Part shown: piece by piece, positions 204-32,186 of the stretch | Position numbering within the stretch: the stretch's first letter is position 1 | Layout of the letters: the number at the start of each line of letters is the position of its first letter | Assembly: GCA_031213475.1 (NCBI GenBank) | Contig: JARUPZ010000001.1 | Coordinates: 20,428,933-20,492,932, forward strand | DNA: 64,000 nucleotides | Origin: Nereocystis luetkeana | Taxonomy: Eukaryota; Sar; Phaeophyceae; Laminariales; Laminariaceae | Reading direction: 5' to 3' | Made by a program: the position numbers and the translations under genes | The notes under the pieces: generated by a model | The model's database searches: none | What the model saw: only the letters and a program-made list of their open reading frames with translations | Told to the model about the DNA's origin: nothing

Positions 204-1757
204 CCTCTTGACTTAAAAAGAGTCCGGACATAGGGTGAAAGTACCGGTGAACGCCGACGGTTTGTCTCAGCCCATACGACACAGCAGAACACCGCTGGAA
301 ATATCAACAACAAAGGCAACGTTTTGCTACGTTGCTGAAATGTTGGGCAGCTTGGAGTTCGCGTAGCGCCATACCTGGCACACATACACCGGATCACCTA
401 ACGATGGTGTCTCTATTGCATTATGGCTCGGGTACTCATAAATAGAGAGTGGCCAAGCATCCGTTACCCGTTGACGTTGACGAGGGCGCTAGTCGACACG
501 TGCGGCGAGGTAATGAGCGCTAGGTTGGGAGAGCGGTCCTAGTCCAACAATAATAGCAATTAAAAATACTACTTAGATGTGGGCATCAAAACTCAACTGT
601 ATTCCCTCGTGGTCAGGTGGGCATCCAAACATGTTATGCCCGGTTTTTGCGTGATCAGCTAAGGCCCGAAAGTAACTTGAACCCATTGACGGAGGCAGTC
701 GAACATACGCAAAATACGTTTCGGCCAATTAACAATAACCGCAAAGGGTATTTACTCGTCTGCGCTCCAAACGGGTGGCAAGAGCGCACGGTGAAACTCC
801 TGAGAGATGTATAAACCCCGTAGGTATATAGGAATGCGAAATCAAAGCAGGAGCTACTTGATACAGTGCGGCAATGCTGGAAACCGTTCCATGTGCTTAG
901 GTGACTAAAATTACAGACGAAAATAACGTGCGGGGAAGTTTCTTAAAACATGAGGTCGACATAAGCTACACTGAATGTCTGTTGAATAACTTACGTGATC
1001 GGGTTTACCTTCGTCATATATACCCGGAGTAACATGAGTACTGTCTCCAAACTTGTCTTAGGTTTAGGTATGACAGGTACTACGCCTTATCCATATCCGG
1101 GTATAGCGGCAAGATCCGCGGACCTGGATATTGACCAAGTACACTTTAAAAGCTTACTTTTGATAAGCCTTGGACGCAAAATTCCGTATATATACTCGGT
1201 AACTACACCCACCAAAGGGAAAAGTAGGCTTGTGAGCAGAGATCGAACTTCAGTCAACAATGACCACATAACCCGACGAACATAGTAGACGGCCACCCCG
1301 ATCGCAACGTCAAGTCTACCACATAAATGACATGTGCACGTAAATATGTTGGGCATATTTAAGAAATCGAGTGTATGCGAACAAAAGCTACACGTAGACC
1401 TTTGTCAATACTTGTAAAGTTCCGCCAATAAAAATTTCCGACTTAATTGCAGAGTAGACAGCTTCGCTGGAACATGGCGCCCCCGAAATAAAGATAAAAA
1501 AGCACTCCTCATGGCAAGCAGGATGCCACGTTTAATGATCGACCGTATATGTTTTGCCAACGGAACCCACCGTCTGTATGAGCTTATCAGAAGTGGGTAA
1601 TTGTTTGTCACGCTAGCGGGGGCCAACTACCGTACACCAAGAACGAGAATCGTGAATCCCTGGTACTCCAGGCGGTACACACAAACACGGTGCGTAAACA
1701 TGATGCAATCGGACAGAACATCGGGCGGGGGATCGAACAGGCATTGCCTCATTTTAC
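204..1757. other. Downstream of the last seen LRR exon, no exon recognised
   Basis: Mixed sequence, no repeats. A minus-strand frame at 1087-1356 is hydrophobic (LLTSLLFPLVGVVTEYIYG) and could be a membrane exon, but splice sites do not support it. Confidence 0.4.
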
Positions 1758-1829
1758 CGTGTGATAGATGACCGTAGAAGTCGAGCGTTTCCAATGCCGC
1801 AAGCTTGCCGAGCCCTGAAGGAATCGAAC
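1758..1829 (-). CDS. Single LRR exon (24 aa), most diverged
   Basis: A 72-nt core encodes (G)SIPSGLGKLAALETLDF followed by YGHLSH. The first half is a perfect LRR, but the consensus asparagine is replaced by glycine in the second half. The donor is G|GTAAAA. The acceptor is either GAAG|GT, as in the other exons, or GCAG three bases upstream, which would add one residue without changing the frame. It is the most downstream recognisable LRR exon in the window. The divergence may mark a last repeat or relaxed selection. Confidence 0.65.
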
Positions 1830-4407
1830 CTTCTGCAGCATCGGCCACGAGACAGCGAATGCTGGTGATTAGACAAGAAACCGAACACACACCGCCTCGT
1901 GCGGGCAGATGCGGGAAGACATGTAATGTAAAGATGCATGCGCCTGCGTGAAGTTTGAGCCGTGTTATACCATAAAAGTTATATTTTGAAGACCAACCAT
2001 TTATTTCTGACGGGGCTCGTCAGCTATTGCAACCGAGGAGGAGTCATCCCACGGTAGGGGTTAAAGCTTTTGGGTCAAAGGTTTCTGACCAATTGGATCC
2101 CTTAAGTAAGTGAGAAACTACCCGTTAGGATGAACGTTTTTCTCGTCTATTTGTTCTTAGGACTAGCGCATACAGCGCATACTACAAGTGCCGGTCGGGT
2201 GGTGCGAACGAATTTTTCCCAAGTAAGTACTGTATCGGGTGAGATAGTGAGCTCCTAATGCTAGGGGCTCAGGAACGTCTGGCGGACCCCAACTTTGGGA
2301 CGGCTCCGAGGTGCTGAATGTATTTGCACCCGATGTGTATTATTGTGAAACATTCTCGAACAGTACCGAGATCATGTCGTTGTGCGCCTGACGTAAGTTA
2401 CGGACCTGTTGGGAGTCGGTTGTTGACTGGGATGTATACGTCTACACAGGATGCTTCCCTTCTTGACACCCGTTATTTTTCGTGGAATGGCCACACACGT
2501 GCACCTTTATCAGTCGCTCTCGCGGGCGCACGTTAAATCCTACAGTTCGCACGTCAACCTCCTGTACTCGCCCTTTCTGTTAGGCGTTGAAATTTTACGA
2601 GGGTGGCCGCAAGTCAGAGCTTCATATTGATGGCTTCAATGATGAACCTTGGCAGAGACACAAAGAAATGAGAAATATCTTAGTCGCTATTTTAGATCGT
2701 ATTTCGTGACAACCAGGGGATCCGTATCACCACACTAAATTCCGTGTAAATCTGCGTGGTCGGGGATAGTGCGAATACCGGTGATAAAGTGGTATTGAGC
2801 TTCTGAAAAAAGAACCAAACGTGGTTGGTTGAAAATCCGATATGTGGCGACCCGGAGGATTATCAGTTCTGAAAACTTCAATTTGCAGCGGGAGTGGCCG
2901 CGCTCCACTAAACACTGTGGCAAGAGAACCGTTGTTGTTTGACGTTCGCCGAAAACCGGTGTCAAATTGATGTTTCAGTCCGGAACCTGCCGTGTGTAGG
3001 ATCGGCGTTCAACATGATTCACAGACAAACTATCAGAACTATCGCGCGCCTATCGGGCAATGCTCGAACACCGAGAGTAAGGTCGGGAAATGTCAGTGCA
3101 CAGCGAATGGATGGAGGACGCTGTGCAGACGCTCGGCTGCGGAGGCAAAATACAACCCCGGAGTACACTAAGTGACTACCCTCGGAAACACCCCACTCCC
3201 GGGTACTGGTAGCATCTGTTGCTACCCATACTGTATGACGCGTCCGTATTCGACTCAGTAAAAGACGTCGGCAGCTCCTACAGGGCCAGATAGCGGGGGC
3301 CGATATTTTTTGTTTTAGTTTCGATTCTGCTCAGAATATCCACTACTGACGTGCTCGCTTCTCGAACAGTTAACGAGAAAAAGATTGTCCCTATCGCTCC
3401 ACAATCCCACGCGTGTGAGGACAAAGTTCAACACTGCTGTGTGAAACAAGAAACGTATTCAGTTAGTATGATTTGATGAACTAAATCTCACGGGGCTCTT
3501 GTGGTGACCGGCTGGTCCTCGCCTAGAGTGTCCTGCGTAGGAAGCGGGACGTATTATGATGGTTTTTCTACCACGATGAGGGGACAAAGACAGCCGCAAC
3601 GGACTGGATTCCAGATATGGAGGAAATGAATAACTGTTCCCCGTTATTATCTTATATTGTTAAACCGTTGCTTGACCGATCGCGCTTCATCAGCTTATAT
3701 TATACCTGCATGCGCGTCAAACAAAAGCTCCCGCATACAACACGAAGTTATTTTCAAGTTTTAGCCGAAGAAGAGCAGTTTTTAGCCTTCGACATGAAAC
3801 AATGCAAACACCCTGTCACCGTTCGGCTCCTTTTGACTGCCACGACTATCACGCTTACATTGGGCAGTGGATAACATAGACCATCAAAACTAGAGTAACT
3901 AAACCTAAAACCCTCACTTGCATCATTTTTGGGCAACCAAAAGGAAGAGCTAGCCACGCGGCAGGAGACGCAATGCAAATGTATTGGTTGGCGCAAAATA
4001 TGAGACGCGGTGTGCACAACGACTGTGGCCGACCGTATAGATCTCGATAAAGTAGAGACAACTCCATGGGAGTACAATTGCTGTTGATATCCAGCGTGTG
4101 TTACGGATTCGACCGCCGGCAATTCCATTTCCTCGTTACTAAATTAGAGGATATCGCGACGGAGGGCATACAATACTCCAACCATATTCCTATAATACCA
4201 GAAGAGTGCGCGTACCAACGGGCTAGCCTTGTGATGTGACCCCACCGAACCAGGCACATATCGAAAAAGTCCACAGCGTTCCTTGTTTCATTTGACAGAG
4301 TCACGCATAGATAGCTTTCAATACGACAGCGCACCCGCGTCGGCTCAATTGAAACGTTTCAGAAGGTCGAGAATCTCTATCAATGCTGATAGTGGATGGA
4401 ATCTCAC
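1830..4407. other. Probable intron of the LRR gene
   Basis: No repeat family or further LRR exon found. Confidence 0.5.
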
Positions 4408-4479
4408 CGACAAACTGATTGCTTCCAAGATCAATAACCTTGAGGGCTACCACATCGCTGAGCCAGTGCGGAATTGAAC
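4408..4479 (-). CDS. Single LRR exon (24 aa)
   Basis: Exactly 72 nt, encoding (G)SIPHWLSDVVALKVIDL followed by GSNQFV; consensus leucines and the asparagine are present. The acceptor is GTGTCCAG|GT and the donor G|GTGAGA, phase 1 at both ends. It lies almost 8 kb downstream of the 12387 exon, with only the decayed exon recognised between. The open frame continues past the donor (IPSTIS), so read-through of the donor would give a short tail before a stop. Alternative: an orphan cassette not joined to the cluster at 12-16 kb. Confidence 0.7.
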
Positions 4480-5546
4480 CTGGACACGTGGGAAGGGCGA
4501 GATTGGCATGGCAGGATCGGTCAGCTGCTCTACCGAAGTAGACGGGCGATACACCAGACACGGCCGTACCGAAACAATACGGAATATAACGAGAGCAGGC
4601 TCGAGTAAACGGAAACCTGAACCACGTTTCCGACAAACTACAAAAGTAGCTGCGATTTCGAAACATCGAGATACTGAATCCTGCAAGGAAACGAACATCA
4701 TGCCACCTTGCCCCACTCATACTTTTTTACCCCGTCCTAGGTCCCGTGAGTGTTTGGTGAGAGGTTCGTAAGCGACGCAAACAACAGGGCGTATACCGGC
4801 TTTGGAACGGTCGCTGTAACAAACGACGCAAAACGCGGCTACGGTTTGAAATGGGTAGTGTTTGACTGCATTGCGTATAGTGCGCAAGCCCCTGATTGTT
4901 TCACTAAATTTCTGATTTAATAGCCATAAGTTCATCCCCAACCTGCATCCCACTTCTACAACCATTCATCAACGCGCTATTCTTTTTAGTTCACGTTCAT
5001 CTACACACTTTCCGTGTCGGCCTCTAGAAAGAAAGTTTACGCTTGGTATCCGATTTTTCGCGGTTTTGAGCCTGGCTGATAGCAACGACGTACCCATGCC
5101 CGTGCCTCGTCACAGCAACAAGCTGGCGGCTATTCACGGGGTGCGGTGATTTCGCAGGGACATGGCTAAGGAACGAAACACTTCGTACATGAAGGGCACG
5201 TTACCCAAACTATTTGTCGCCCTGGAGTTCTAAAACACTTGCCACGGTCTTACTATAGGGACCCTCGTTTTCCCAATGTACTGCACTGAACTAGCGTTAG
5301 TTAGCTGTAAAATCGCCAAGAGCCTTTCGGAGGTACTAGCATCGATCAAACGTACCTGGTTTACATGCATTCGCGAATACATCTTATGTATACACTACGA
5401 GGATACTTCTAGCCCACGCACCACAAACGGCGCACGCGCCAACGACGCGAACAAACGAAACAATAACAAAAACGGCCAGCCGCAGGGCAGGTCAGTAGAT
5501 GAATTGCAGTTTTCGTCTGATACGATATAGACGCAACAAACTGCAG

Positions 5547-5654
5547 TATTACGGGGGGCAATAGTTAATAGGACCTATGGTACACATAGAAAACGATATA
5601 TGCAACCATTTTTACCAACAATATGTTGTCCTATTAACTATGGCCCCCCGTAAT
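5547..5654 (-). mobile_element. Family A MITE
   Basis: Same inverted ends as the copy at 72-180, with a few mismatches (GCAATAG for ACCATAG at the left). Reverse orientation. Lies in an LRR-gene intron. Confidence 0.8.
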
Positions 5655-5735
5655 GGTAGAAAGTTGCGCTTGGCATCGTGCGGCAGAGCTGGAGAAAACA
5701 TTCTCTAACCAACAGCACACCGCAGACGCCACTTC

Positions 5736-5780
5736 GGTTCGGACGGGTAAAAAGAACGGTTTAATGTGAAGAACACACGC
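5736..5780 (+). mobile_element. LINE 3' end fragment with AC tail
   Basis: CGGGTAAAAAGAACGG, then TTTAATGTGAAGAACACACG, is the same 3' terminus seen inverted at 24199 and 27960. A 5'-truncated relic only. Confidence 0.6.
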
Positions 5781-5837
5781 ACGTCTTCTTTGATGAGGTC
5801 GGCATATATATATAGTACCTTTCTAAGTGAGGACCTC

Positions 5838-6134
5838 TAACAATCTGGGAGAAGGGATCTTTAGGTTGGTAGGCTGTTCGGGTGTATTGGTTCCTGCTGG
5901 GATCGAGGCACGGGCGAACACCCAACCCAACCCCTGATTCTAACCCTAACTCTAACCCAGACCCCAAACCGCAGCCAAAACGGGCCAAAACTCGCCATAA
6001 TAAAGGCGGCTACGCCGAGTTTGCATGGAACCAGGAAATTTCTCAGTTGCGGACGACGATTCCGAAGTGCAGACCACGCTACACATTTCTCAAGCAAAAA
6101 ACATCCCTAAAGATCCCTTCTCCCAAACTGCTAA
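5838..6134 (+). mobile_element. Family E element with telomere-like core
   Basis: Inverted ends CAATCTGGGAGAAGGGATCT and its inverse, which ends CCCTTCTCCCAAACTG. Inside lies a stretch of CTAACCCTAACTCTAACCC. About 297 bp, non-coding. Other copies are at 41457, 42017 and 53893. Confidence 0.75.
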
Positions 6135-7636
6135 ACATACTCTTCAGAGTAGTGTCGAATAGCGAGGGTAGTGAGGTGTATCCGCGTAGAATACCGGCGC
6201 ATGTGTTCGACCCCGACCGGTAAGGTATGACCCTCGAGACGTTGAAAAATTACGCACTTACTTACGACTTCGGCGCGGCTTCATGTGCCATACCTTAGTA
6301 CTAACGGTACGTGGTCCAAACCTCCCCCCCCTTGTCGGATATGCCTGTCGATCAAATCGCTGGACTTGGGGTACGAGATTAAATACCGTACATTTACCCC
6401 AACGGTAGGCCGTGCGCTAGGTCTGGTACGAACTCGGAAATTTCGTAAAAGTTTGTACTTCTACCTGATTACGAAATCTCCGGGACACATCATGTATGCG
6501 GGGTACGCGTCCTCCGTTTCTCATGGCCACACTCAAACATCCTATGGACCAAGAAGTCCATGACCGTCGTGGATAAATGGAGTTGCTACCTAGTAAACAC
6601 ATTGAACAACTCGATCGTCGCGCAGCCCCTTGTGTGCACAGGAGTCCCTAACGGCACTGTCTCTACCGCATTAAAGATCGGGACACATCAAAAACAAATT
6701 GATAAAACTCCCACGACCATTGAAGTAGACAATAAATGACGGGCGCTTGCGTAAAGCCATTTCGAACGAGAAATAAAAAAAAACAATCCACAGGATTAGC
6801 AAGTTGGTGATAAGCAAGCCCACAATACCTCGGGCACGCAAAAGCGACATCCCAGTCACCAGACACTAACAGAGCGGTATTCTTACTTTTAAGCCCGAGC
6901 GAAGACAACACCATTTTGTGCGCGAAAACGAGTCGACCGAACCGAACATCGTTCGGCGGACCAATAAGCAAACAGGCAGAACATAACACATGTCGTTTAC
7001 GAGGGATACAGTCACCAGCTGTGCCACGAAGTAGAACCATTCATTGAGTATAGGACATTACCCCAGTTTCGAACTGTGTCGCGAATCATATGTTATATGC
7101 GTTCGTGTGGACTCCCAAAACGTACGCGTGATGTATGACGGTACACGCGTCTGTGCTGCTATCCGCATAAAATGCTCTGTAAAACGACGACTGACATCCC
7201 GAACTCATATTTCAGTACTGATCACGTTTGACTTATTACCGTAGTTCGCCACGGGAGAAGGAGTTTATCCTGCCAGCCGTTATTCGACGACGGAGCCAAA
7301 TATATATATATATATATATTAAGTGTATTCTCGAGAAGAGATTGAAACACATGCATGGACTGATGCTCTCCTGAGCGACTACAATACAACTCGGGCGAGA
7401 CCCGTGTTCGATTCAATGGGTGTTCGAATACGGTGAAGACATGGCAGCGCCGGTGGTCGACCGAGTCTAACATAAGTATGTGGTATAAGTATGTGGAGTT
7501 AACTGTTTGTTGTGCACATGACTCGAGTGTGGTTTGATTCCAGCGACAACAAGGAATGGAAAGCAGCGTTCGAGACAAAACTCGCTTCTTCTGATGATGT
7601 AGACGCAACCTTTAGTAATAACAGAAGAGAGATACG

Positions 7637-7745
7637 TATTACGGGGGACCATAGTTAATAGGACCAAATATTGTTAGTAAAAATGGTTAAATATATAGGT
7701 TTTTATGTATACCATAGGTCCTATTAACTATGGTCCCCCGTAATA
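7637..7745 (+). mobile_element. Family A MITE
   Basis: 109 bp, near-perfect inverted ends flanked by TA. The core reads AAATATTGTTAGTAAAAA (forward orientation). It lies about 75 bp from the decayed LRR exon. Confidence 0.85.
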
Positions 7746-7819
7746 GTGTTGGGTGGAAGACGAGGACAGCACGTGAGCAAGCGTTGTTCAAGATTGAGTA
7801 TGAACAGCCTGACGAGTAA

Positions 7820-7890
7820 CGTTCAGTTGATTGCTACTGACGAGAACGCTTCACATAACGACCAGCTTGCTGAATGGTAACAAACGGAAC
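7820..7890 (-). pseudogene. Decayed LRR exon
   Basis: After an acceptor-like AGTTCAG there are 71 nt instead of 72 that still align to the LRR exon. FSKLVV and SSNQLN can be read at the expected places, but in a frame shifted by one base relative to the start. A stop codon interrupts the middle, and the donor G|GT has become G|TT. This is a host LRR exon that has lost coding function while lying in line and on the same strand with the intact ones. Its removal from the mRNA would not disturb the frame because neighbours are all phase 1. Found by eye from the conserved exon start and the NQLN end. Confidence 0.55.
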
Positions 7891-8275
7891 CTGAACTCGG
7901 GGGTGTACTTGAGCATGCTATTAATTAAGCATGACGTACGTCACAATTTATATTGAAGGGGGCACTCTGATATTTGTTGTGTCCTGGACCTGCTAATGGT
8001 TTATCACTACCAAGCAGGGCCGGAGCAAAAGTGCTCGCATGGTCCCATGAACAGTCACGTGAGCTGTGGATGTACTGTCTACACGACGATAACGTAAAAC
8101 ACGACCAGGTTTGAAACGTAGCATAAGTTCTGCTTGGTACTGACCGATTGCTGGTCACAAAATCTGGGGCCCCTGCTAGGGCTAGCCTCGAAACTGGTAT
8201 TTGGTGGAGGTGACCAAAACCTCTGGGACCATGCTTCCCCATATTGAACTCCATAGTGATTTGTTGTGTACCAGG

Positions 8276-8384
8276 TATTATGGGGGGGCATAGGAAATAG
8301 GGCCAGGTATTGTTAGTGAAAATGTGCAAATATATAGATTTTTGTGTGTAACGTGGGTCCTTTTTACTATGGCCCCCCGTAATA
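8276..8384 (+). mobile_element. Family A MITE, diverged
   Basis: Same core and ends with more mismatches. Its left target TA is the last TA of a TACCAGGTA motif at 8269-8277. Confidence 0.75.
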
Positions 8385-8550
8385 GTAGATACTGATGTAC
8401 TGCCACAAGCTGAAATGAGTCCTGATCCACCACAAAATGGAGTATGCCTTGAACCAAAACAGTTCTCGCGGATACTAAGGATGACAGCAAAGTGGAGGAG
8501 AAGCTGCGGGTGTGTACGGTTGCGGTAAATCGAGAGTAACATGTCGACGC

Positions 8551-8715
8551 GTTTTACGATAGAGGTAGCACATTTCCGCCAAATAACAGGTTTTTGAATG
8601 ACGGCGACCCTCAATCCAAAATCATCCGAATGCCAACCTTCATTTGAAGTGTAAGGCATGGAGCTCTGTAGGCGAGCACCTTCAGAATATCTCGTGTAAA
8701 CCTTTATACTAAAAC
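8551..8715. mobile_element. Family B MITE
   Basis: Begins GTTTTACGATAGAGGTAGCA and ends with a degenerate inverse near 8700-8715. The interior shares TTTTTGAATGACGG and GGAGCTCT with the other B copies. Confidence 0.6.
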
Positions 8716-9123
8716 GCCCCCGCCACTAAGTTAAAACTGTTCTAAGAGATGGCACCGTTCAATTTGTTCTGCGTGTCACTCGTATAGCGTCGTGCGTGCA
8801 GCAGAAACGCATTATTACATCAGGTCTGTGGCGCGCCATGTTCATGGTCGTGTTTGTAGCAGAAAATAATAGGTTGACCATTTATACAAATCATGTTTCT
8901 AAAGGACTTGCTCAACATCCGTGGGGCCTCGAGACGTGTTTCTCGAGCCGCGTATGTGGTCGCGGGGTGGACCGCACATAGCTGGAAGCCAGTCGAGATG
9001 CGTTACTGAATAAGGACCGGCAGGTAGCAGCGAGTAACAAGTTGTGACCAATACAGGCTTCAACTGTTTATCCACTTCGGCAAGTATCTATAGTTGGAGC
9101 ACAACCCAGGGCTCCTTGCGTTC

Positions 9124-9465
9124 CTGTGAACGTGTTACCTACCGAGATATAGGGGTAAAAAATCGATACATTACCCAGTCCAGGGTAATCCTTATAACAC
9201 TCTTCCCCCCTTTCAACGGCGGGATCTTTGGGGGTCGGAACCTCATACCTCCGTACGCTGACCTACCCGCTTCGTTTCATTACCTGGGGATCTAAGGGAG
9301 ATTTGTCTTTTTTAGTTGTGCACGCGCAAGCGTCTCTGTAAAAGAAACGTTCGAAGTGAGGTTCGAACCCGTGACCTGGACGACGTCAAATGTGAAGGTA
9401 TTACCCACTGAGCTGTACGGGTAGAAAATCGATCGATTGCCCCAGCCCAGGGTAATCCTCACAAC
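9124..9465 (-). mobile_element. SINE family S2 (tRNA-derived, dimeric)
   Basis: On the minus strand, AGCTCAGTGGG (box A) and GGGTTCGAACC (box B) lie at tRNA-like spacing (about 9359-9413). The tRNA 5' half recurs as a direct repeat at 9124-9185, so the element carries 65-75 bp direct repeats at both ends. Between them is a conserved body with AACGGCGGGATCTTTGGGG. Acceptor-stem pairing is lacking, so this is not a tRNA gene. Copies at 18857 and 55276. Confidence 0.65.
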
Positions 9466-10245
9466 ATTCCACCTCAATCGAGGTAAATCCATATCGGGTT
9501 TGCGACATAATTACGTGGCAAAGGGCGTGGAGAGCAAGGGCGGGAGTCTGACTTCCCTCCGCGAACCCTTTTCAAGATCAAGGTTGGACGATGGCAACGA
9601 AAGTATCATGAGAACGACAATACTGCTTGCCCAGACTTGGACTCGCGTGAACAGTTAAAAACATGTTACAAGATATCTGAAGAAAAACATTGACGTTGGT
9701 CGAGTTCACGAAATACATCACAGCGAGAAAACGGACTGAGGCCGTTTTGGGAGTTTGAAGCACGCCGCTGGTTCGATGCACGCAATAATAAGTGATGCAG
9801 CATTGTTGTGTTGTGAAGGGCCACCACGAAACCCAGCAGATGCATATTGTTGTATGGTTTCTCCAACGTCGCGAATGCACCCTCGGGAGTATGGGCTTAG
9901 TGGAGACGATTTAGGCGAACTCGCTGGGAGCTCCCTCTCATTACATAGGGGAAGTCGATCAGTTGGAACGTTTGGTCTGCCCTAGGCTATCATAGAAAGC
10001 GGACAAGAATGCAGTATAGGCGCATGCTTCGATATCAGTGTACGCCCATGTTTCAGGGGCTCCTCTTTTGAAAAGCTCTTGGCTGGGCCTCAAAAAGGCT
10101 ACCAGGTACGAACGTCAATGGCGGCGCTCTCTGTAGGCCTAGGTGTACAACCAATATGGCATTGTTATAAATAGACTGTTTTGCGTATTCAGTTGGAGAC
10201 CGCCTGCAGCCAGAAGACTTGCCTCGGACAAAAAAAAACGACACC

Positions 10246-10492
10246 TTCTACGATAGAGGTAGCATACTTCCGCGAAACGTATTTTTGAATGACAGAGGCT
10301 CCTTAGCCCAAGACCGTCGGAATGTCAATCTTGTTGCGAATAAAGACGGAATGGTATACATGGGCCATGAGAGTATTCCTCTGGGTGCAATTTGAGTTTT
10401 GCTGGAGTCAGTTTTGGGGTGAGTTACAAATAGTACGGAGACCCCAAAGTGAGAAGCCTAAGAACAATTAGGGTGAACCTCTATCGTAAAAT
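10246..10492. mobile_element. Family B MITE
   Basis: TTCTACGATAGAGGTAGCA left end, ACCTCTATCGTAAAAT right end, about 247 bp. The interior aligns with 24547-24773 and with positions 8-71. Confidence 0.7.
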
Positions 10493-12386
10493 GGCCCCGA
10501 CACAACACATATGTTTTTTGTTTGTTGCGAGTATATTCAGATAATCGAGTGCATGCCAAACTCCGAGTATCGAGGGCGTTGCATTACCAGGGGGCAAAAT
10601 CCAGTACTGAGTTGTATACGCCTTACAGAACGCCGAGCACAAGCCGTATCCACAGTAGAAATATCCGACCGACTTAGAGCAGCACTCTGTATCAAGACTA
10701 CTGGACTCGCAAATACTGCGACTACTCGCAGCTTGTACCCCGCAAAAAACTGACCGTACTCGAAGTGCTCCAGATCCTCCCTCGTGAATAATTCGCTTTG
10801 ATTACCACTCGTGAGACCACCCGTTCATGTGTTCCGTTCGAAAGTGGCGAATTTTTCGTCGAAACGGCTCAGATGATTCAAGTCGTCTATACGCTTCACG
10901 TATTCTGCGCATATTGACGGTAGCTCGGTATTTCGAGTACTTACAGCACCAACGGACAAAATTCTGACAGCACTTGGCACTGCTTGTGGAAAGAACACAA
11001 AACTACTTGGGGTAAAGCAGTAACCTACGGTACTGGACCAGCCTAAAACGGCGGGTACGGCACTATCCGCAGTACATTTGTTGAACTACTGCGGGTACTC
11101 GCAGTCTCGTGCAGTCCATAAAGGCCAAATACTGCTAGTGCTTTAGTGTCACTGTCGAAGATACTCTACTAACGTCTGTGAAATGCTGCTGCTCCCATGG
11201 TGCCGAACAGCGCCAGCTCTAGGAATGTGTTAAATACTGTTGCAGGTCTCGACGCAAAAGCAACAGAGAGTGAAGAACGATGTAGTTTTCTGAGTCGTTG
11301 TTTCGTTCGGAGTTCCTGATTCAGACGTGTTCTCTTGTTACAAAGCCAACGAGAGAGTGAGTGTCTACTTCCCACCGAATATCACGGGTGTGTGCAAAAT
11401 CGTCAACAATGCATGAAACAAACAACGCAATCACTTCGTAAGCGTTCGTGAACGAAAGCTTACAGAGCTCCTGTACTAAGCGGCTGCGCTTTGCGGACAG
11501 TCCTGCATGAATGGCGAGGAGACAACCGCGCCGGAATGTATTCAAGCTGATAGATAGTGTTCGGATCTCGCTCATGACATCCGTTTTACTCCATCTTCAC
11601 CAACACACACATTGCTAGATGAATCACGCTACATCAAATGTTACAACATCAGCGCGCGTGATGGCCACGGACTGAAACGCTACGCTTCATTCATGCTCGT
11701 ACCATTCACACAACAGTTATATTTTACCCTCGACGCGTAGCGGCGGAGGAACCTGCCACGGCTCAACAACGTTTGATTCCCCAGACTATGAAGTGTTGAA
11801 CACGTAGTGGGTCATACTGACCATCGGTGGTCGTACGTTAACACATGCCTGTCCTTTGCATCGTACATTGGAAACCAAGCGCAAGAGGTGGCCATGTGAT
11901 TGGACACATTCAGGTCCAACTGTCTATTGTGCACCATGTCAGACGCGGTGAAGAAAGTGTGCCGTAAACTACTGATCTTTGTCAAGTGCGTGCACTCCAT
12001 GGGGGTATAGCTGCTGCTTTGAATGCAGCCTTTCATGCGCCATGCCGACCGCCATCACTACCCCCCATACTCTGATAATAGAGCTTGAACGCGACAGGTG
12101 TTTTTTCAATTGTGCACCGAGGTTTCAGTTTCAAATAGGTCTAGTAAACCAAAGTTCTAGACTTCATCAAGTCGAACGATGCCTTCCGTTGTAATGGAGA
12201 ATTTAACTTATCACTAGCCCAGGACCAGCCGCACCAAAAAAAAAAGTGCAAAGCGTTCCTCCTTCAGTGTGACGAGCTACGTATTCCTCTCTATACGACA
12301 GGACAGCCCCCGGACGTAGACCGCATCCGAAGGGTTGCAGCAACCAGGTGGACGTTCATTGAGGCTGCCATCGAGCAGAGTCTCAC

Positions 12387-12458
12387 CGTCAAGTTCATTG
12401 TCGGCAAGGTTGAGATTCGTCAAAGCCACCAGATTGCTGAACTCGGCTGGAATAGCAC
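12387..12458 (-). CDS. Single LRR exon (24 aa)
   Basis: Exactly 72 nt, encoding (G)AIPAEFSNLVALTNLNL followed by ADNELD, with all LRR consensus positions kept. The acceptor is ATTCTCAG|GT and the donor G|GTGAGA, a near-ideal eukaryotic donor; phase 1 at both ends. The intron sequence at about 12250-12300 resembles that at 13562-13612 beyond the 13665 exon, so this exon probably belongs to the same duplicated cassette group, more diverged. Confidence 0.75.
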
Positions 12459-12974
12459 CTGAGAATGTGGCGAGGACAAAGGTAGCAGAAAACAATAGGT
12501 GTGGTGCTCCCCTGCAGCACACAAAGGGAAATACAAGACACTTGGCGGGGCCCCGGTAGGGTCTTTTATAAATTGGCCCTCACTTGAGCAACGGGTCGCT
12601 TGACGCAGATATAGGCAAACGAGGCTGACTTTACTTCACTACCTACCACCACCACCACCAACATATCTTGTGTGCTGGAATCCAACACAAACCAGTACTA
12701 CTGCCTCCGTTACGTGCCGTAGCACCGAATTAACCTCGACCGTGGTATACGTAGACTCTCCAATCAACTCCTGTAGACAAAGTTATGGTGCGGTAGGTTT
12801 GCTGAGGCGTATCGAAATATTTTGTCGTGAGACCTTACCTACTCACCAGCTAATCCCAACATCACACCTGAACAGAGAATAACGCCTATACTCTCTGTCG
12901 TAGGCCTACGGTTGTCTTTGATTACGATATGTATGCCATAGCCGATCGAGGGTGGTAATGACCATACTATTTAC

Positions 12975-13046
12975 CGTGCAACCGATTGTAGGCGAGGTTG
13001 AGCGTCTTCAAAGCCACCAGCTTGGCTAACGCGACCGGAATCGAAC
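12975..13046 (-). CDS. Single LRR exon (24 aa)
   Basis: Exactly 72 nt, encoding (G)SIPVALAKLVALKTLNL followed by AYNRLH, with the LRR consensus intact. The acceptor is TATCCAG|GT and the donor G|GTAAAT, phase 1 at both ends. The 60-70 bases upstream of the acceptor and about 100 bases beyond the donor resemble the flanks of the 13665 exon, 690 bp away. This marks a recent cassette duplication. Differences between the two exons fall partly in the solvent-exposed x positions of the LRR. Confidence 0.75.
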
Positions 13047-13664
13047 CTGGATACCGGGCAGTGTCGACGTGAGGCGAACCGAGCAAAACGCTGTTGGCTC
13101 ACCGCAAGGTGTGTGAAATGCCGCATGCCCTCTGTGGCGGACTACAGACAACCGTGGTCTGTAGGGAGAGGCAACCGTGGTTTATAGGAACGGCAGACTC
13201 CGACCTTTGTCGAAGCAGCAGATCGCTCACACAAGCCTGAAAAACGTCCAGATACTATATCTAATATCACCTGCATTGCGCCTGACCGAAGGGCTATTGA
13301 GGGCAACTGTGCGTTCACCACGCGAAAGATGTGCTTGTGTTCTGTGTGTCAAGCTACCGGATATCTGAATATATGCCACCTAATTGACGGGATGGAAGGT
13401 CTCCGTCATATAAAACAACGAGGAAGTCGCATCCACCTTCGAATGCTCTCACTCCCTTATCAAAGATACCAAATTTATATGGTAGGCATACTGAAGCCTG
13501 TCGAGCGCTTTGGCATGAGGCCATACCTACACACCACGTGATCGCAACAGCATATATATAAGCAGAGTAGAACGCTCCTCCTTTCTGTTAGAGGGCTACG
13601 TTTTTCTTTGATCACGATGGCACAATATAGTAGACTGCACAAACTGTCGCTACAATAATCGTAC

Positions 13665-13736
13665 CGTGCAGCCGATTGTGGGCGAGGTTGAGTGTCGTCA
13701 AAGCCACCAGTTCGCCTAATTCATCCGGAATCGAAC
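13665..13736 (-). CDS. Single LRR exon (24 aa), first after the cap
   Basis: Exactly 72 nt. It encodes one complete leucine-rich repeat beginning (G)SIPDELGELVALTTLNL and ending AHNRLH, with the consensus L-x-x-L-x-L-x-x-N-x-L-x-G register. The acceptor is TATCCAG|GT and the donor G|GTACGA; both split the glycine codon (phase 1). One exon equals one structural repeat, so adding or skipping it preserves the frame. It is the closest relative of the exon at 12975-13046, and the intron sequence on both sides is also similar between them, so the two arose by a duplication that included intron. Role: one turn of an LRR solenoid used for ligand binding (family knowledge). Confidence 0.75.
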
Positions 13737-14566
13737 CTGGATACCGGGCAATGTTGACGTGACGAACACCGAGCAAAGGACTGTTGGCTCACTGCAGGGT
13801 GTCTTAATTAGGCTTTCATCCTGCGCTTACAATACATCCCGCTTTTACACGACGTACCCGCCCTAATCAATCCCGGACCCTGCATAGGCCGGTCAAGCAC
13901 TGCCACTCTGTTCGAACACAAAATAGATGTTGACGCTAAGGGCAAAGAGCCTAACACGGTGTGGGCTCGAGTATGGCCCCTACGAATTACGTACAGTTAT
14001 TCAGCCAGGCTGCTTGTACATCACACTCTATTTAGAGCAACCACGGAAAAAGGCATCGACCTTGAACGATTACTTGTACTCGTGCCACGTGGCTGATAGC
14101 GACTGACTGCGGTATAGCTCGCGCGCAGATCCTTTGGGTTCTGTAGCGGGTGATGCAGGAGCGGCGGCAGCAGCAACGGTGGTGGCCGGGCGATGTGAGG
14201 TGCCTCCAGCTACATGCCCATTTCTCCAACCGAGCACCCACGGTGCTTGAAACTCGGCGCGCCGATACGGTGGCGCGCGTAGCCTCTAAGGGCAAAAGGG
14301 CGCACGAACCACAGCCAGTTTCAATGTTAACAGTCGCTAAACTGGGCGTTGCTTGCAGCATAGCTGCTGCCGCCACTAGCTTCCTCCTGCGGCTGGCGGC
14401 ACTGGTACAGCAGCGGCGGCACCGCCGTTTATTCTGCCGCAGCCGCAGTTCATGGGTGATCGTTTTTATGTTACATGGTTGTGGCTGTACTACTCGCTTG
14501 GTTCGCCGTGCGGCCTTGCTTTCCTGTCCGATACAGCACGGAAGATTTGCGATGTCAGGGTTGGTA

Positions 14567-14609
14567 TTCCACTCTCACTCGCGCGGTGACAACGTGAGTG
14601 AGAGTGGAA
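14567..14609. repeat. Hairpin, 14-bp arms
   Basis: TTCCACTCTCACTC, 15-nt loop, then the exact inverse. Lies in an LRR-gene intron. Confidence 0.7.
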
Positions 14610-15489
14610 ACATTCTGACGTTATGTAGTATCAACCTGCGAACTTCGCAGAACCTGTTGTACGCCGAAATTGCGATACTATATCAGAAGCGAGGCTTGCT
14701 CGGCAAATCTTAACGCACACACACTGCAACACACGGCATAGCGCAAACGAGACACGGAACACCAAGTCGCCGATACAACGAGGAACTCGTTGAAGAAACA
14801 CCAATGTTCGCAAGTATTTGACTGTCTCGGCACTGCTAGCAAGCCTTGAAATGTCTGAACTTCTCGCACGAGTATACTCAAATGGGACGATCACTACCCA
14901 CGTTCGACGAGGGGTTAGAAGAGTGAAGAATACTTAGAACATTGCGGATTGGCCGGGGAGAAATCATATGTTGTTTATCCGTTCACATCACATTTTAGTG
15001 AACGTGACACGACTCGCACGGGTATAGTCTCGCGAAAGCCGTACGGCGTCGCATAACATACGTCGAACAAATGCACTCCTGAAAACACGACTCGTACGTA
15101 ACTCGTCCAATATTCGATGCACGAGGGAAAGGCGACATCCGATCGCTTCTACTGTTGACTCAAAGGGCATAATAAGTTGGCTCGCGCATATCGACCAGAC
15201 ATGGTTCGCTATCTCAACATCGGTCCCTCCGACCAGTTGGCTATATTCTCTTCAGAACAGGTTGCAGTACAAGTCAACTAATGCGTCCAAAGCTGTCGAA
15301 TAGTCATGATAGAATGCGAGATGAATCTCTCTGCTGTCTGCCAGTGGTACTCTTCACATACCGTCAAATTATTTCCCTGTTTTAAAGTGTATTCCTTGTG
15401 ACAGCATCCAACTGGCCCATACCCAACGATAGCTTTCCTGAACGTACGGTATCAGACGGATGGGAAACTCGATTTGATCATAACACATC

Positions 15490-15597
15490 TACTGCGGGGG
15501 ACCATAGTAAATAGGGCGAAATATTGCTAGTAAAAAACGTTAAATATAAAGGTTTTGTTTATACTATAGGTCCTATTAACTATGGCCCCCCGTTATA
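15490..15597 (+). mobile_element. Family A MITE, diverged
   Basis: TACTGCGGGGGACCATAG left end, CCCCCCGTTATA right end; forward core. Paired with another copy about 300 bp away. Confidence 0.75.
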
Positions 15598-15890
15598 TAG
15601 CACAACAAGCTGGGTTGGGACAAACGATAAAAGGTATTGTATTCCGGGTACGCCAAGTGTTGACAGGTAAACACGTGGGATTCACGGTGAGGCTTGGACG
15701 AAGCAAGGGCGTGAAACGACGTCGCGCAACGCACAATCCACTGGCGGTTCAACCCGGCCTCTCTGTAGAACACCACCCCACAAGGTGGCTTGCGCAAATA
15801 AATGGCAACACTGACACTCCCTACAACTGCAATTGAATATTTGATCCTCACGGCAACTGAACAAAAAGAGTGGAATGTTCGCATTTCAAC

Positions 15891-15999
15891 TATTACGGGG
15901 GGCCATAGTTAACAGGACCAAATATTGTTAGTAAAAATGGTTAAACATATAGGTTTTTATGTATACCATAGGTCCTGTTAACTATGGTCCCCCGTAATA
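15891..15999 (+). mobile_element. Family A MITE, AACAGG subtype
   Basis: 109 bp. Both ends carry GTTAACAGG or its complement instead of GTTAATAGG, so the change is matched at the two ends. Forward core. Confidence 0.85.
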
Positions 16000-16346
16000 C
16001 GAGTGACCACTTGACAAGACGCAACTTATTGAACACAAGTATTGTGTTTCGGCAGCGTGACGTATGCTGCTGCAGAGGTGGGTAGTTTCAGGCAACATTA
16101 TTCATCGCTGACGGAGCTCTTATACGACGATCCCTTCTAACATCGTCGGGACGTCAAGTGCACTTTTCACATTAGCGACGTACTACTGGGTCATGAGAGT
16201 GTGTGGATGGTCGAGCATTTACTAGTTCCTGAAAGTATCCGTTTCATGGAGGTGAGGAGGTCCACAGTAACGAGTCCCGGAGCTTTCGCGTGCATGACTC
16301 GGGAACGGTCGTATTTGAAAGTACGAAACTGGCATGGGTTTGTTAC

Positions 16347-16565
16347 CGCGAACGTAGATGAGGTCGTCCCTCTTGCCGACGCGGAATCGACGGTTGGTTC
16401 CTCCAAGCTCCAGTGTGACAACTCGTTCTTCCCCGTTTAGAGCGACACCGAACCACGTATCCAGGTCGCTTGAATTGTCCTTCCAGCCTTGTTGGTTTTT
16501 CAACAATTCCTCACCCCTTGTTCTGTACAAGGTCTGGAGCACTGCACGATCCGACCTTACGAGAC
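16347..16565 (-). CDS. N-terminal cap exon of LRR protein
   Basis: Exon of 219 nt (73 codons), open throughout. It contains the pattern SDRAVLQTLY, then QQGWKDNSSDLDTWFGV, then ERVVTLELGG, which matches the N-terminal LRR cap seen in plant and algal LRR proteins (D-R-x-x-L, a GW, then W-x-G-V, then R-V-V-x-L-x-L). The acceptor reads CCCACAG and the donor is G|GTAACA. Both ends split a glycine codon in phase 1, the phase used by all LRR exons downstream on this strand. The cap normally shields the hydrophobic core at the start of an LRR solenoid. The stretch after LELGG (about 15 residues, basic and aromatic) is longer than usual before the first LRR, so an earlier donor is possible. The N-terminus and any signal peptide must come from an unseen upstream exon. 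Confidence 0.65.
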
Positions 16566-23850: not shown

Positions 23851-23928
23851 ATTGATCCAAATATATGTAACTGCTTTTTTTGTCGTTTCGTTTTTTTTTT
23901 GGATCTATCCCCAAAACTGCTTTGTCAC

Positions 23929-24490
<562 letters not shown>

Positions 24491-28723: not shown

Positions 28724-31700
28724 AAGAAAAAAAAAAAAAAAAAAAACAAAAAAACAAAAAAAAAAAAAAAACTAAAAGAGAAGACAAGGGAAGACCACGT
28801 TCGAGCCAGCTGCACCAGTTGGTAGCACTAGTAGTATGGTCATATTCTACTTCCTAGTCGACTTGGTGCCTTGCTACCCTGTCTGCCATCTCCTTCCTAC
28901 TTTCGTCTACCGCCGTTTCCCTTCTACCCCTCCTGTTCCCCCCCCTCTCCGCATTCCCTCGGTCGGGCTTTATGCCACTTCTCCTGTTGCCCCCTCCCCC
29001 CCCGTTCCTTTGGGCACCATCCACGGCGGATGCGCGGCGCTGTCTACTCATCTCAGCCTCAGCCTCGTGCCACCTCACCATGAACCGTTCGGCTGCTTCA
29101 AGGATCCCCCGGTACCACTTCCCCACCTTTTTGGCTGCAGTGGACCACAACGCGGTCTCAACTCCAAACACCAAGGGGGCAACTTCCGTTGACCCTTCGG
29201 TGGCTCGGAACTCCCTAAGGTCTTCGACTATGCATCTATGCCAAGTCTTACACTGTCCGCCTGGTCTCGGGTTCTCCCCACCAGCTATCGTCCCGAGCAT
29301 TACCCGATTGGGTAATCGCTCCTTGCTTTGCCGTGCCACGCCCCCCGCAAAGAAGAGCCGCCGTTTGCGAATGGTCGTTTCGATGCTCTCGCAACGTGTC
29401 ATCTTGAGGGCCTTCGCGTACGAGAGGGTGGCATGGTCAGTACGAAGTCGGCGCTGGAAGCCAATGACTCGCAACAGGACTTGGTGGTGAGCCGTTCGAA
29501 GCTTGGCAAAGTGTTCCGCTCTGAGGGTCCACGTCACACACCCGTACAGCAGGGTCTCAATCACCTCGGCCTTCAGCATTCGGACTTTAAGGCTAAGGGG
29601 GGCGGTCGTCCTATCATACAACTCCGGGCCGAACCGTTTGAAGCATGCTCGCATGAGGCGGATCCGTCGGTCGATTTCGAGCGAGAGGTCAGCGTTTTCG
29701 TGGATAACGCCGCCTAGGTATAAGAACTGGGTCGTCTGCTTATACCTCTGACCTGCCGCTTCGATGACGAGCGGTGGTGCGAGGGTTGTCCGGTCTGGTG
29801 TTTGTAGGACCATTGTCTCAGTCTTCTTTTCCGACACCGTGAGGCCTGCTGCTTCGAAGACAGTCACGATGACTGTCATCATTTTTGCGAGCCCTTCAGC
29901 CGACTTCGAGACAATTCCTGCATCGTCGGCGTATAACATGCCCCATACAGACCTTCGCACGCACGCCAATGGCTCCTCCTTCCCTGTTCGAACTACTCCA
30001 GCTTCACAGAGTTGGACCAAATCCCTTACAATGGCTTCGTCTTGGCTGAAGCGTACTAGTACGACGTGTAACGCAGCAGCGAAGAACACGTTGAACAGTA
30101 ACGGTGACAGTACACAGCCTTGCCGCAGCCCCTGCGTGACATCAAACCATTCCGAGAGCTCGCCGTCATCAGTACGCACGCGAGCCCGCATGCCATCGTG
30201 GAAATTACGGATAATTCTCAGCATCTTGGTTGGTACGCCAAAGCGTGTGAGTACCTTCCATAACAGCTCTCGGTCGACAGAGTCGTACGCTTTCTGCAGA
30301 TCGATGAAGCACACGTAAAAGGGGATTTTCCTCTGTCGTCCGAGCTCTTGCAGCCGGCGCACGACGAACAACATATCAATCGTTGATCGTGCGGGGCGGA
30401 AGCCGCACTGTTCCTCGGGGAGTAGTTCCTCGGTCTCGCAGTAGTTGCTGAGGCGGGACGCGACGATTTTCAACAACACTTTGCCTGCGTGGGCAACAAG
30501 CGAGATCCCTCTATAGTTGTTGCAGTCAGTTCGATCCTTCTTTTTGTGAAGGACCTTGATGATCGCATCTTTCCATTGCTGAGGGACTTCTCCTGTTAAC
30601 CAAACATTGACAAGGATGTTGTGAAAGCGCTGGGCGAATGCCGGGTGGTCGATTTTTAGGAGTTCGACCGGGAGACCATCTGGCCCGACAGCTTTCCAAT
30701 TCGACATCCCCTTAAGTGCTTCGGTCATCTCGTCTATGGATGGTTCATCTTCAAGCGACAGTTTAGGCGGTCGCGGTGGCAAGAGGTCGATGATCGTGGG
30801 ATCGAGTTTCAGCGACTTCGTGTTCAAGAGTTTGTGATAAAACCCCGCCCATCGTTCACGAATTCGCACCTTATCCCGTAGGATCGTGCCATCCTCGTCC
30901 CTAATGAACTGTTCGCTCCTCGCTTTAGTCCCTTCCAATCCTACCGTACTCTTAAGGTGCTTGTAAAAGCCTCTTTGGTCGTTGTTCGCTAGGAGTCGTT
31001 CGGTTTCGGCAAGGTACGCTTCGAAGTACGCATGCAGTCCTGCGGCAATCACCTTCTGCAGGTTCGCACACGCAGATCTCAGGGTCTTCCACGCGGTTCT
31101 GTCCCGGGGGTGGGCACGCAAGAATTGTCGTGCATCCTCCCTCGCTGTCCATGCTGGCATGAATGCGGCCAAGGTTTCGGCAGACTCACACCATCCATGT
31201 CTGCGGTGGCGACGTGCAGGGGGTGGTACCTCTTTTTCGACCGCATCAATAACAGCCGCAGTGAAAATCTCAACCATACCAGACGTATTACGGGGCTGGA
31301 TAGGCTGGTTGAGAGTGGAGATGATCCTGGAGACTACTCGTTCACGACAATTTCCATCGGACATAAAAAGCTGCCTGTCGAACTCTCGGCGTTTCGTCGG
31401 TCTACGTATTTGTCTGTTGGGCGCAAAACGACCACCGAGTCGGACTTTGATATACAAGATGTTGTGGTCTGAGTCAGCCTTAGCTGGGGCAGGAGGCTGT
31501 GGGACGACTTTCGCATCTTGTACTCTAGGTCGATGGACTTGACGGGTTAGGATGTAGTCAATCCGCTTACGGTCATTCGGGCCGGTGCCGTTGTAAGTAT
31601 GCGATATCCCACCCTTGCGCGTGCTGAAAAACGTGTTGGTGAGAGCCAACTTGCAATTGGTGGCGAACGACAGGAGCCGTCTGCCATTATCGTTACGAAC

Positions 31701-32186
31701 ATCACGTCCATACGCTCCCAGCACTCTGCTTTCATCATCACCGCACCCTTCCTTCCTCTGTCCAGTTCGCGCGTTGGCATCCATCAGTACAAACAGACAC
31801 TCTTTCGTCGGGATTTTTTCCACCAAGTACTCCAGCTTCTGCCAGAAGGTACCTTTCAGTTCGGCGTCCTTGGTACAATCAGTTGGAGCATACGCAACGA
31901 CGAAATTGACTGCCTCGCATTTGCCAGCCAGCTCAAAGCGCATAGACATTAGCCGCTCGTCAACGAACTGATGAGTATACACAGACTTACTGCACAACGA
32001 TTCCTTGACAGCTAGGCCTACTCCGTACAGCCCTTGCCTGGTGGCTGTTGTTTCCTGTCCTGAACAGAAAACACGATACCCTGCCGCACGGAACGTCGTG
32101 CTGCCGGACCTCCGAGTTTCTTGCAGGCCAATGAAGTCACAGCCGAGTTGCCGTCCCTTCGCCAGTGCCTGCTCGTGGTAACGCTG
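28724..32186 (-). mobile_element. LINE (RTE-like), nearly complete
   Basis: Contains one long frame with endonuclease and reverse transcriptase, then a short T-rich 3' region (on the minus strand). The 5' end is cut or interrupted at a family A MITE (32187-32295). Single ORF with an APE-type endonuclease and a C-terminal ETLLYG motif resembles RTE-clade elements (family judgement, moderate). Confidence 0.8.
28854..32186 (-). CDS. LINE endonuclease-reverse transcriptase polyprotein
   Basis: Uninterrupted frame of about 1,110 codons; its start is beyond the MITE at 32187, and the first methionine is not identified. N-terminal APE-type endonuclease: FIGLQETR near residue 20, LMDANARTG near 135, RIDYIL near 210, SDH near 240. 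The middle is reverse transcriptase: WKDAIIKVLHKKKD, then NYRGISL, then CGFRPARSTIDM, then FIDLQKAYDSVDR, then QGLRQGCVLSPLLFN, with catalytic YADD near residue 752. C-terminal ETLLYGCVTWTL and RKRRLFFAG, then a Gly/Arg-rich basic tail that may bind nucleic acid. The enzyme nicks DNA and primes cDNA synthesis at the nick (family knowledge). The intact catalytic motifs and open frame suggest recent activity. It is the only long gene in the window. Confidence 0.9.
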   Translation of the reverse strand, partial: QRYHEQALAKGRQLGCDFIGLQETRRSGSTTFRAAGYRVFCSGQETTATRQGLYGVGLAVKESLCSKSVYTHQFVDERLMSMRFELAGKCEAVNFVVAYAPTDCTKDAELKGTFWQKLEYLVEKIPTKECLFVLMDANARTGQRKEGCGDDESRVLGAYGRDVRNDNGRRLLSFATNCKLALTNTFFSTRKGGISHTYNGTGPNDRKRIDYILTRQVHRPRVQDAKVVPQPPAPAKADSDHNILYIKVRLGGRFAPNRQIRRPTKRREFDRQLFMSDGNCRERVVSRIISTLNQPIQPRNTSGMVEIFTAAVIDAVEKEVPPPARRHRRHGWCESAETLAAFMPAWTAREDARQFLRAHPRDRTAWKTLRSACANLQKVIAAGLHAYFEAYLAETERLLANNDQRGFYKHLKSTVGLEGTKARSEQFIRDEDGTILRDKVRIRERWAGFYHKLLNTKSLKLDPTIIDLLPPRPPKLSLEDEPSIDEMTEALKGMSNWKAVGPDGLPVELLKIDHPAFAQRFHNILVNVWLTGEVPQQWKDAIIKVLHKKKDRTDCNNYRGISLVAHAGKVLLKIVASRLSNYCETEELLPEEQCGFRPARSTIDMLFVVRRLQELGRQRKIPFYVCFIDLQKAYDSVDRELLWKVLTRFGVPTKMLRIIRNFHDGMRARVRTDDGELSEWFDVTQGLRQGCVLSPLLFNVFFAAALHVVLVRFSQDEAIVRDLVQLCEAGVVRTGKEEPLACVRRSVWGMLYADDAGIVSKSAEGLAKMMTVIVTVFEAAGLTVSEKKTETMVLQTPDRTTLAPPLVIEAAGQRYKQTTQFLYLGGVIHENADLSLEIDRRIRLMRACFKRFGPELYDRTTAPLSLKVRMLKAEVIETLLYGCVTWTLRAEHFAKLRTAHHQVLLRVIGFQRRLRTDHATLSYAKALKMTRCESIETTIRKRRLFFAGGVARQSKERLPNRVMLGTIAGGENPRPGGQCKTWHRCIVEDLREFRATEGSTEVAPLVFGVETALWSTAAKKVGKWYRGILEAAERFMVRWHEAEAEMSRQRRASAVDGAQRNGGGGGNRRSGIKPDRGNAERGGNRRGRRETAVDESRKEMADRVARHQVD

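What the first reader, a model, noticed from the sequence alone, without database searches (positions are those of the whole stretch)
1758..16565. Dispersed phase-1 cassettes, one LRR per exon, behind an N-cap exon
Five intact exons, each exactly 72 nt, one LRR each, all on one strand, all starting (G)GT after AG and ending G before GT, plus an N-cap exon in the same phase. Any exon can be dropped, copied or reordered without breaking the frame. This is seen directly. Brown-algal LRR-ROCO and NB-ARC/TPR genes are known for one-repeat-per-exon shuffling and have been proposed as diversifying immune receptors. Whether this locus is expressed, and varies between individuals or by splicing, is inference.
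Basis: partly seen in the sequence, partly recalled or inferred. Interest (0 to 1): 0.9.

Follow-up and report, generated by a model that had tools for sequence, protein, structure and literature searches.

The report
Brown-algal one-repeat-per-exon LRR array
This seaweed-like DNA carries part of a leucine-rich-repeat gene in which each repeat found sits on its own interchangeable 72-base exon, an arrangement already published for candidate immune receptors of brown algae, so it is a real but not a surprising find.

Summary
On the minus strand there are five 72-nt exons, each AG|GT...G|GT, phase 1 and one LRR long, behind a 219-nt N-cap exon in the same phase. The exon signature alone is common by chance (29 on the minus, 19 on the plus strand). 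The LRR anchors are not: 5 of 29, 0 of 19, and 0 of 111 in five simulated sequences. Profiles find no further intact copy in 64 kb, and one possible dead copy at 7820-7890. Two of ten exon pairs share intron flanks well above shuffles, so duplication of symmetric cassettes is supported. The architecture is in print for brown algae: one 72-bp exon per LRR, nt 3-71 coding 23 residues, in ROCO genes and other, mostly LRR-only, loci (PMC11378527). No ROC or COR was found in the ORFs scanned; the window ends 1757 nt past the last exon. The N-cap matches N-capped Ectocarpus LRR proteins without ROC in their Pfam lists, so ROCO membership is open. Expression, splicing and variation are untested. Verdict: new member of a known kind.

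The parts
16347..16565 (-). N-cap exon (219 nt, phase 1 at both ends): DRxxLxxLY...W...LxTWFGVxxN..RVVxLxL...(V)RG
   Evidence: over cap plus first LRR, 22 alignment columns are invariant with three caps of the Ectocarpus protein P0162 and one of the unnamed protein P0041; 13-residue in-frame insertion before the final (V)RG; no Pfam match of its own
13665..13736 (-). LRR exon 1, 72 nt, phase 1
   Evidence: leave-one-out DNA E 1.7e-14
12975..13046 (-). LRR exon 2, 72 nt, phase 1; copy of exon 1 with flanks
   Evidence: leave-one-out DNA E 4.2e-15
12387..12458 (-). LRR exon 3, 72 nt, phase 1
   Evidence: leave-one-out DNA E 1.3e-12
7820..7890 (-). possible dead LRR exon (71 nt, in-frame stop, no GT at the donor place); suggestive only
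   Evidence: E 0.43 with the exon profile, 0.037 with 12-nt flanks, 0.87 with cassette profile c34, not listed with c12 and c1234; 1 of 30 simulated 64-kb sequences scored as high
4408..4479 (-). LRR exon 4, 72 nt, phase 1; the intron after it starts in frame with GEIPSTIS
   Evidence: leave-one-out DNA 0.13, protein 0.0042; P0026 133 of 139 identical across exon and flanks
1758..1829 (-). LRR exon 5, 72 nt, phase 1; LRR tail degenerate
   Evidence: leave-one-out DNA E 3.4e-4, protein 4.9e-4
13405..13810 (-). cassette A: exon 1 with about 75 nt of upstream and about 260 nt of downstream intron
   Evidence: profile built from cassettes A and B; BLAST 299 nt at 72.9%, 2.4e-42
12714..13120 (-). 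cassette B: exon 2 with homologous flanks
   Evidence: (D17)
12218..12386 (-). intron start after exon 3, similar to the intron start after exon 4
   Evidence: Smith-Waterman score 58 against a maximum of 33.5 in 200 shuffles
4241..4407 (-). intron start after exon 4, similar to that after exon 3
15490..15598 (.). intronic copy of a short inverted-repeat element family
   Evidence: D3
15884..16011 (.). intronic copy of the same element family
   Evidence: D3, I8, I10, I14

Best explanation
This is part of a brown-algal gene, or a decaying fragment of one, whose binding domain is an N-capped LRR solenoid built from interchangeable exons. Each 72-nt exon begins with the last two bases and ends with the first base of the glycine codon that joins neighbouring repeats (G|GT), so any number and order of exons keeps the frame and the 24-residue repeat. 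New repeats arise when an exon is copied together with surrounding intron, probably by unequal recombination; copies then diverge, some die, and introns take up transposable elements. The binding surface changes in repeat number and exposed residues without breaking the fold. SHOWN: exons, frames, boundaries, LRR identity, N-cap relationship, and similarity of intron flanks for two of ten exon pairs. INFERRED: brown-algal origin, splicing of these exons to each other, the recombination route, ligand binding, and an immune or signalling role. NOT KNOWN: what follows the LRRs (ROC-COR, another C-terminus, or nothing).
For: Exons, phase and LRR content. The published brown-algal pattern is the same to the nucleotide: 72-bp exons, nt 3-71 coding 23 residues. 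The N-cap aligns with Ectocarpus caps, and its (V)RG end matches their (L)RG or (L)QG end, which supports the exon end at 16347. Flanks are similar for pairs 13736/13046 and 12458/4479. Exon 1829 still resembles the other exons (34-47 of 72 nt identical) although its flanks (350 nt downstream, 120 nt upstream) match none of the others above shuffles, as expected if coding was kept. dN is below dS in 8 of 8 computable exon pairs out of 10, ratio 0.30-0.84. A copy of exon 4 with its flanks, 133 of 139 residues identical, lies on another public contig.
Against: No transcript evidence. Introns of 2610, 7907 and 2578 nt lie inside what would be one gene. The last exon has a degenerate LRR tail and what I judge a weak acceptor. 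The N-cap holds 13 residues absent from the caps compared. A possible dead exon sits inside the array. No first exon with a start codon is known; none was searched for systematically. Eight of ten pairs show no clear flank similarity; 13736/12458 is only marginally above shuffles, 36 against a maximum of 34. Upstream and exon identity of the closest pair were not shown to differ. dN/dS comes from 69-nt, non-independent pairs without a significance test, and two pairs are saturated.
Confidence: 0.75

Rival explanations
1. It is the front of a canonical brown-algal LRR-ROCO gene, with the ROC-COR GTPase encoded beyond the window edge.
For: Same exon size, codon cut and LRR length as ROCO LRR exons of brown algae; published ROCOs have 4-49 LRRs.
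Against: No ROC or COR in the minus-strand ORFs scanned below the last exon (5 of 15 ORFs of 35 aa or more), but the window ends there. The four Ectocarpus proteins with a related cap (P0155, P0162-P0164) show no ROC in their Pfam lists (three re-scanned). Non-ROCO loci with such exons exist in S. japonica. Whether published ROCOs carry this N-cap was not tested.
Confidence: 0.35
2. It is an LRR-only locus or a decaying gene fragment that no longer makes a receptor, of the kind proposed as a reservoir for exon shuffling.
For: Sparse exons spread over 15 kb of repeat-rich DNA; degenerate last exon, possible dead exon, N-cap insertion; 15 non-ROCO sequences, most LRR-only, reported in S. japonica; ten ROCO pseudogenes predicted in Ectocarpus.
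Against: All five exons and the N-cap keep frame and AG/GT; dN below dS in 8 of 8 computable pairs.
Confidence: 0.4
3. It is a non-ROCO, N-capped LRR protein like the Ectocarpus proteins P0155 and P0162-P0164, which hold several cap-LRR blocks and then a shared C-terminal half without a Pfam domain above cut-off.
For: 36-43% identity with three caps of P0162 over cap plus first LRR; 39% over 190 residues with P0155; several cap-LRR blocks in these proteins.
Against: The cap also occurs in proteins named bacterial (P0186), so it does not mark this family by itself; the exon structure of the Ectocarpus genes was not available.
Confidence: 0.25
4. The exon pattern is chance: short open frames that look like exons.
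For: The bare AG-72-GT signature is as common as in simulated sequence; exon 4479 is weak when left out of the profile.
Against: LRR anchors in 5 of 29 on one strand, 0 of 19 on the other, 0 of 111 in simulation; leave-one-out E down to 4e-15; shared flanks for two pairs.
Confidence: 0.01

Closest known systems
Brown-algal LRR-ROCO genes (Ectocarpus, Saccharina japonica, Cladosiphon, Nemacystus; PMC11378527, citing Zambounis et al. 2012, which is not held)
   Same: One LRR per exon, each exon 72 bp, nt 3-71 coding 23 residues; introns cut the codon at the same place (that paper calls it phase 2; by the usual convention, recalled, it is phase 1).
   Different: No ROC or COR seen here; five widely spaced exons; expression and alternative splicing unknown; an N-cap is not mentioned in the five of six parts of the paper that were read.
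S. japonica non-ROCO sequences with 72-bp LRR exons, most LRR-only (PMC11378527, discussion)
   Same: Shuffling-type LRR exons without a detected ROC domain.
   Different: The present locus is cut by the window edge, so LRR-only status is not established; no N-cap is mentioned in the text read.
Ectocarpus N-capped LRR proteins (P0155, P0162, P0163, P0164)
   Same: Cap DRxALVALF...W...LGTWxGVxVN..GRVVxLxLxxNNLRG followed by GxIP repeats.
   Different: About 40% identity; the window's cap has 13 extra residues; exon structure of the Ectocarpus genes not seen; window C-terminus unknown.
Gonadotropin receptor LRR exons of animals (named as a parallel in PMC11378527) and ERECTA-type plant LRR kinases (recalled, not looked up)
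   Same: LRR units coded by similar-sized exons with introns in one phase.
   Different: Different lineages and proteins; no recent shuffling is claimed for them in what was read.

Membership tests
Brown-algal LRR-ROCO | Each LRR on its own 72-bp exon, same codon cut, nt 3-71 = 23 residues | tested here: met
   five of five LRR exons
Brown-algal LRR-ROCO | LRR consensus LxxLxxLxxLxLxxNxL | tested here: met
   exon 1829 deviates at the N and the last L, exon 4479 has V, I and F at anchor places
Brown-algal LRR-ROCO | ROC GTPase domain C-terminal to the LRRs | tested here: inconclusive
   not found in the 22 window ORFs scanned, but the window ends 1757 nt past the last exon
Brown-algal LRR-ROCO | COR domain | tested here: inconclusive
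   not found; only 18 of 111 published ROCOs have a detected COR, and the window is cut
Brown-algal LRR-ROCO | Alternative splicing of LRR exons | not testable with these tools
   no transcript data
Shuffling-type LRR-exon loci (ROCO or LRR-only) | Array of symmetric 72-bp LRR exons related by duplication | tested here: met
   flank similarity well above shuffles for two of ten pairs, so duplication with intron is shown for those only
Ectocarpus-type N-capped LRR proteins | N-cap DRxALxxLY..W..LxTWxGVxVN..GRVV before GxIP repeats | tested here: met
   with a 13-residue insertion
Ectocarpus-type N-capped LRR proteins | Shared C-terminal half after the LRRs | not testable with these tools
   would lie outside the window
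Brown-algal NB-ARC/TPR genes | TPR repeat exons with an NB-ARC domain | tested here: not met
   the repeats are LRR; no NB-ARC or TPR in the 22 window ORFs scanned

The most novel reading that the evidence does not exclude
The locus belongs to a second, non-ROCO class of brown-algal receptors: N-capped LRR proteins that share one pool of interchangeable 72-nt LRR exons with ROCO genes, so that exons move between receptor classes as well as within a gene. The intron after exon 4 begins in frame with GEIPSTIS, like the start of a further repeat, which hints that the glycine codon GGT between repeats doubles as a ready-made splice donor and that introns can be gained or lost at repeat joints without harm.
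Probability: 0.2. Interest if true: 0.55.

Novelty: new member of a known kind. Interest (0 to 1): 0.3.

Why it matters
Shuffled LRR exons are a published candidate mechanism by which brown algae could diversify pathogen recognition (PMC11378527). A locus with one recognisable tandem cassette pair, more diverged cassettes and a possible dead one side by side is a concrete place to measure exon birth and death across strains. If the N-capped class proves non-ROCO, the exon pool serves more than one receptor family.

Tried and rejected
Chance exons: rejected by controls. More intact exons elsewhere in the window, either strand: none found. Flank similarity as a mere dispersed transposon: the cassette profiles and single-cassette BLAST hit the known exons, the possible dead exon (E 0.037 and 0.87), two short BLAST matches of 16 and 19 nt (E 0.035) and profile hits of E 1.9 or above, so no dispersed family shows within this window; the rest of the genome was not seen. 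Selection at the four published sites (14, 16, 18, 19): position 19 differs in all five exons, but positions 4, 5 and 8 vary about as much, so nothing is shown beyond variability. ROC, COR, NB-ARC or TPR: not found in 22 ORFs scanned; most of the 97 ORFs of 110 aa or more were not scanned; a few matches were all below cut-off. NCBIfam: six families matched the joined protein, all far below their cut-offs and through the LRRs. tRNA and Rfam: none. Viral contigs with the N-cap frame, the retrotransposon protein and the repeat pattern: no relatives. The window's own genome: the genome search gave no answer to the same request in nine tries. Zambounis et al. 2012 is not held and is known here only as cited by others.
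Full report
OBSERVATION. Five LRR exons are exactly 72 nt, on the minus strand, with AG before, GT at the start, G at the end and GT after. Read from the third base they give 23 residues each, with the glycine codon of the repeat joint split G|GT. The N-cap exon (16565-16347, 219 nt) has the same phase. Joined, they match Pfam LRR_1 (1.5e-18), LRR_4 and LRR_8; the N-cap frame alone matches no Pfam family, and the frame over exon 4 alone matches LRR_1 only at 0.061. Intron lengths between the exons are 2610, 618, 516, 7907 and 2578 nt.

CHANCE. The bare signature is not evidence: AG, 72-nt open frame and G|GT occur 29 times on the minus and 19 times on the plus strand, and 18-25 times in each of five simulated one-strand sequences (111 in all). 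Requiring LRR anchor residues leaves 5, 0 and 0. The best protein-profile score in 30 simulated 64-kb sequences was 12.1 bits, against 46-54 bits for the exons, which are however part of the profile. Leaving each exon out, three are found at DNA E of 1.3e-12 or better, exon 1829 at 3.4e-4 (protein 4.9e-4) and exon 4479 at 0.13 (protein 0.0042).

DUPLICATION. Exons 13736 and 13046 share 299 nt of upstream intron, exon and downstream intron at 73% (2.4e-42). The introns after 12458 and 4479 align from their first base over about 168 nt, score 58 against a maximum of 33.5 in 200 shuffles; 13736 against 12458 downstream scores 36 against a maximum of 34. The other seven downstream comparisons do not exceed their shuffle maxima, and upstream only 13736/13046 does. 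A sixth, broken copy possibly lies at 7890-7820: E 0.43 with the exon profile, 0.037 with 12-nt flanks, 0.87 with one cassette profile and unlisted with two others, and 1 of 30 simulations as high. It has an in-frame stop, is one base short and lacks GT at the donor place. Short inverted-repeat elements sit in the introns.

CODING STATE. dN is below dS in the 8 of 10 pairs that could be computed (ratio 0.30-0.84; two saturated), without a significance test. Exon 1829 has lost the NxL end of the repeat. The N-cap holds 13 residues more than three caps of the Ectocarpus protein P0162 and one of P0041, but its RG end fits theirs. Whether the gene is alive is open.

RELATIVES. The first protein search (192-aa joined query) gave 40 proteins. 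P0001 is the window's own N-cap reading frame, on 3 contigs of at most 1436 nt. P0026 matches the frame across exon 4 and its introns at 133 of 139 residues, one change lying within the 24-residue repeat. A third, with one cap of P0155, gave 48 proteins, four named Ectocarpus (P0155, P0162, P0163, P0164), none of the four with ROC (PF08477) in its Pfam list; P0186 is named bacterial. P0155, P0162 and P0163 were re-scanned without a ROC match. By sequence, the best PDB matches (60 of 269 shown) are led by plant LRR receptors such as GSO1 and FLS2, which reflects the shared repeat type.

ORGANISM. Brown-algal origin is an inference from the N-cap relatives and the repeat elements: a 23-nt piece of the inverted-repeat family was found on one genome contig, JALZWD010000061.1, labelled a Flavimaricola MAG. 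Matches to this window's repeats lie within 422-3049 of the 8-kb stretch held; from about 3.6 kb on the reading frames look bacterial to me, unsearched. Flavimaricola is named in a kelp microbiome paper (passages of PMC9238374). The species is not identified.

KNOWN. PMC11378527 (parts 1-5 of 6 read) reports 111 ROCO genes in four brown algae; in those outside its groups 3 and 4 each LRR sits on a 72-bp exon with nt 3-71 coding 23 residues. It reports alternative splicing in Ectocarpus, positive selection at sites 14, 16, 18 and 19, and 15 non-ROCO sequences with such exons in S. japonica, most of them LRR-only, and says that somatic recombinant ROCO loci have not been reported. A kelp study links ROCO-like genes to growth variation (passages of PMC12913910); the Saccharina genome paper names ROCO GTPases as defence and development candidates (passages of PMC4421812). 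A search for 'brown alga', 'leucine-rich repeat', '72 bp' and 'exon' returned only PMC11378527.

VERDICT. Real, correctly read in its anatomy, and a new member of a known kind. What remains open is whether it is alive, what follows the LRRs, and whether an N-capped class shares its exon pool with ROCO genes.

Noticed in passing
28854-32270 (-): Open frame of 1138 aa with endonuclease and reverse transcriptase domains (PF03372, PF00078): a non-LTR-type retrotransposon protein without internal stop.
   Followed up: partly
72-180, 5547-5655, 7637-7745, 8276-8384, 15490-15598, 15891-15999, 32187-32295, 57959-58067, 60983-61091: Family of about 110-nt elements with inverted-repeat ends (GGGGGACCATAGTTAATAGGACC), five of them in introns of the LRR array.
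   Followed up: partly
L001 1-8000 (JALZWD010000061.1): Contig of a bacterial MAG that matches this window's repeats within 422-3049 while its later frames look bacterial; perhaps a chimeric contig.
   Followed up: partly
4385-4407 (-): The intron after exon 4 continues in frame as GEIPSTIS, like the start of a next repeat; P0026 has GEIPATIS. No chance control was run for this.
   Followed up: partly
23855-24222: Long GT/TG dinucleotide-type tract.
   Followed up: no
38597-38961 and 44368-44732: Inverted pair of 365 nt, 89% complementary; nearby frames look to the eye like reverse-transcriptase remnants, but Pfam gave no match for the two scanned.
   Followed up: partly
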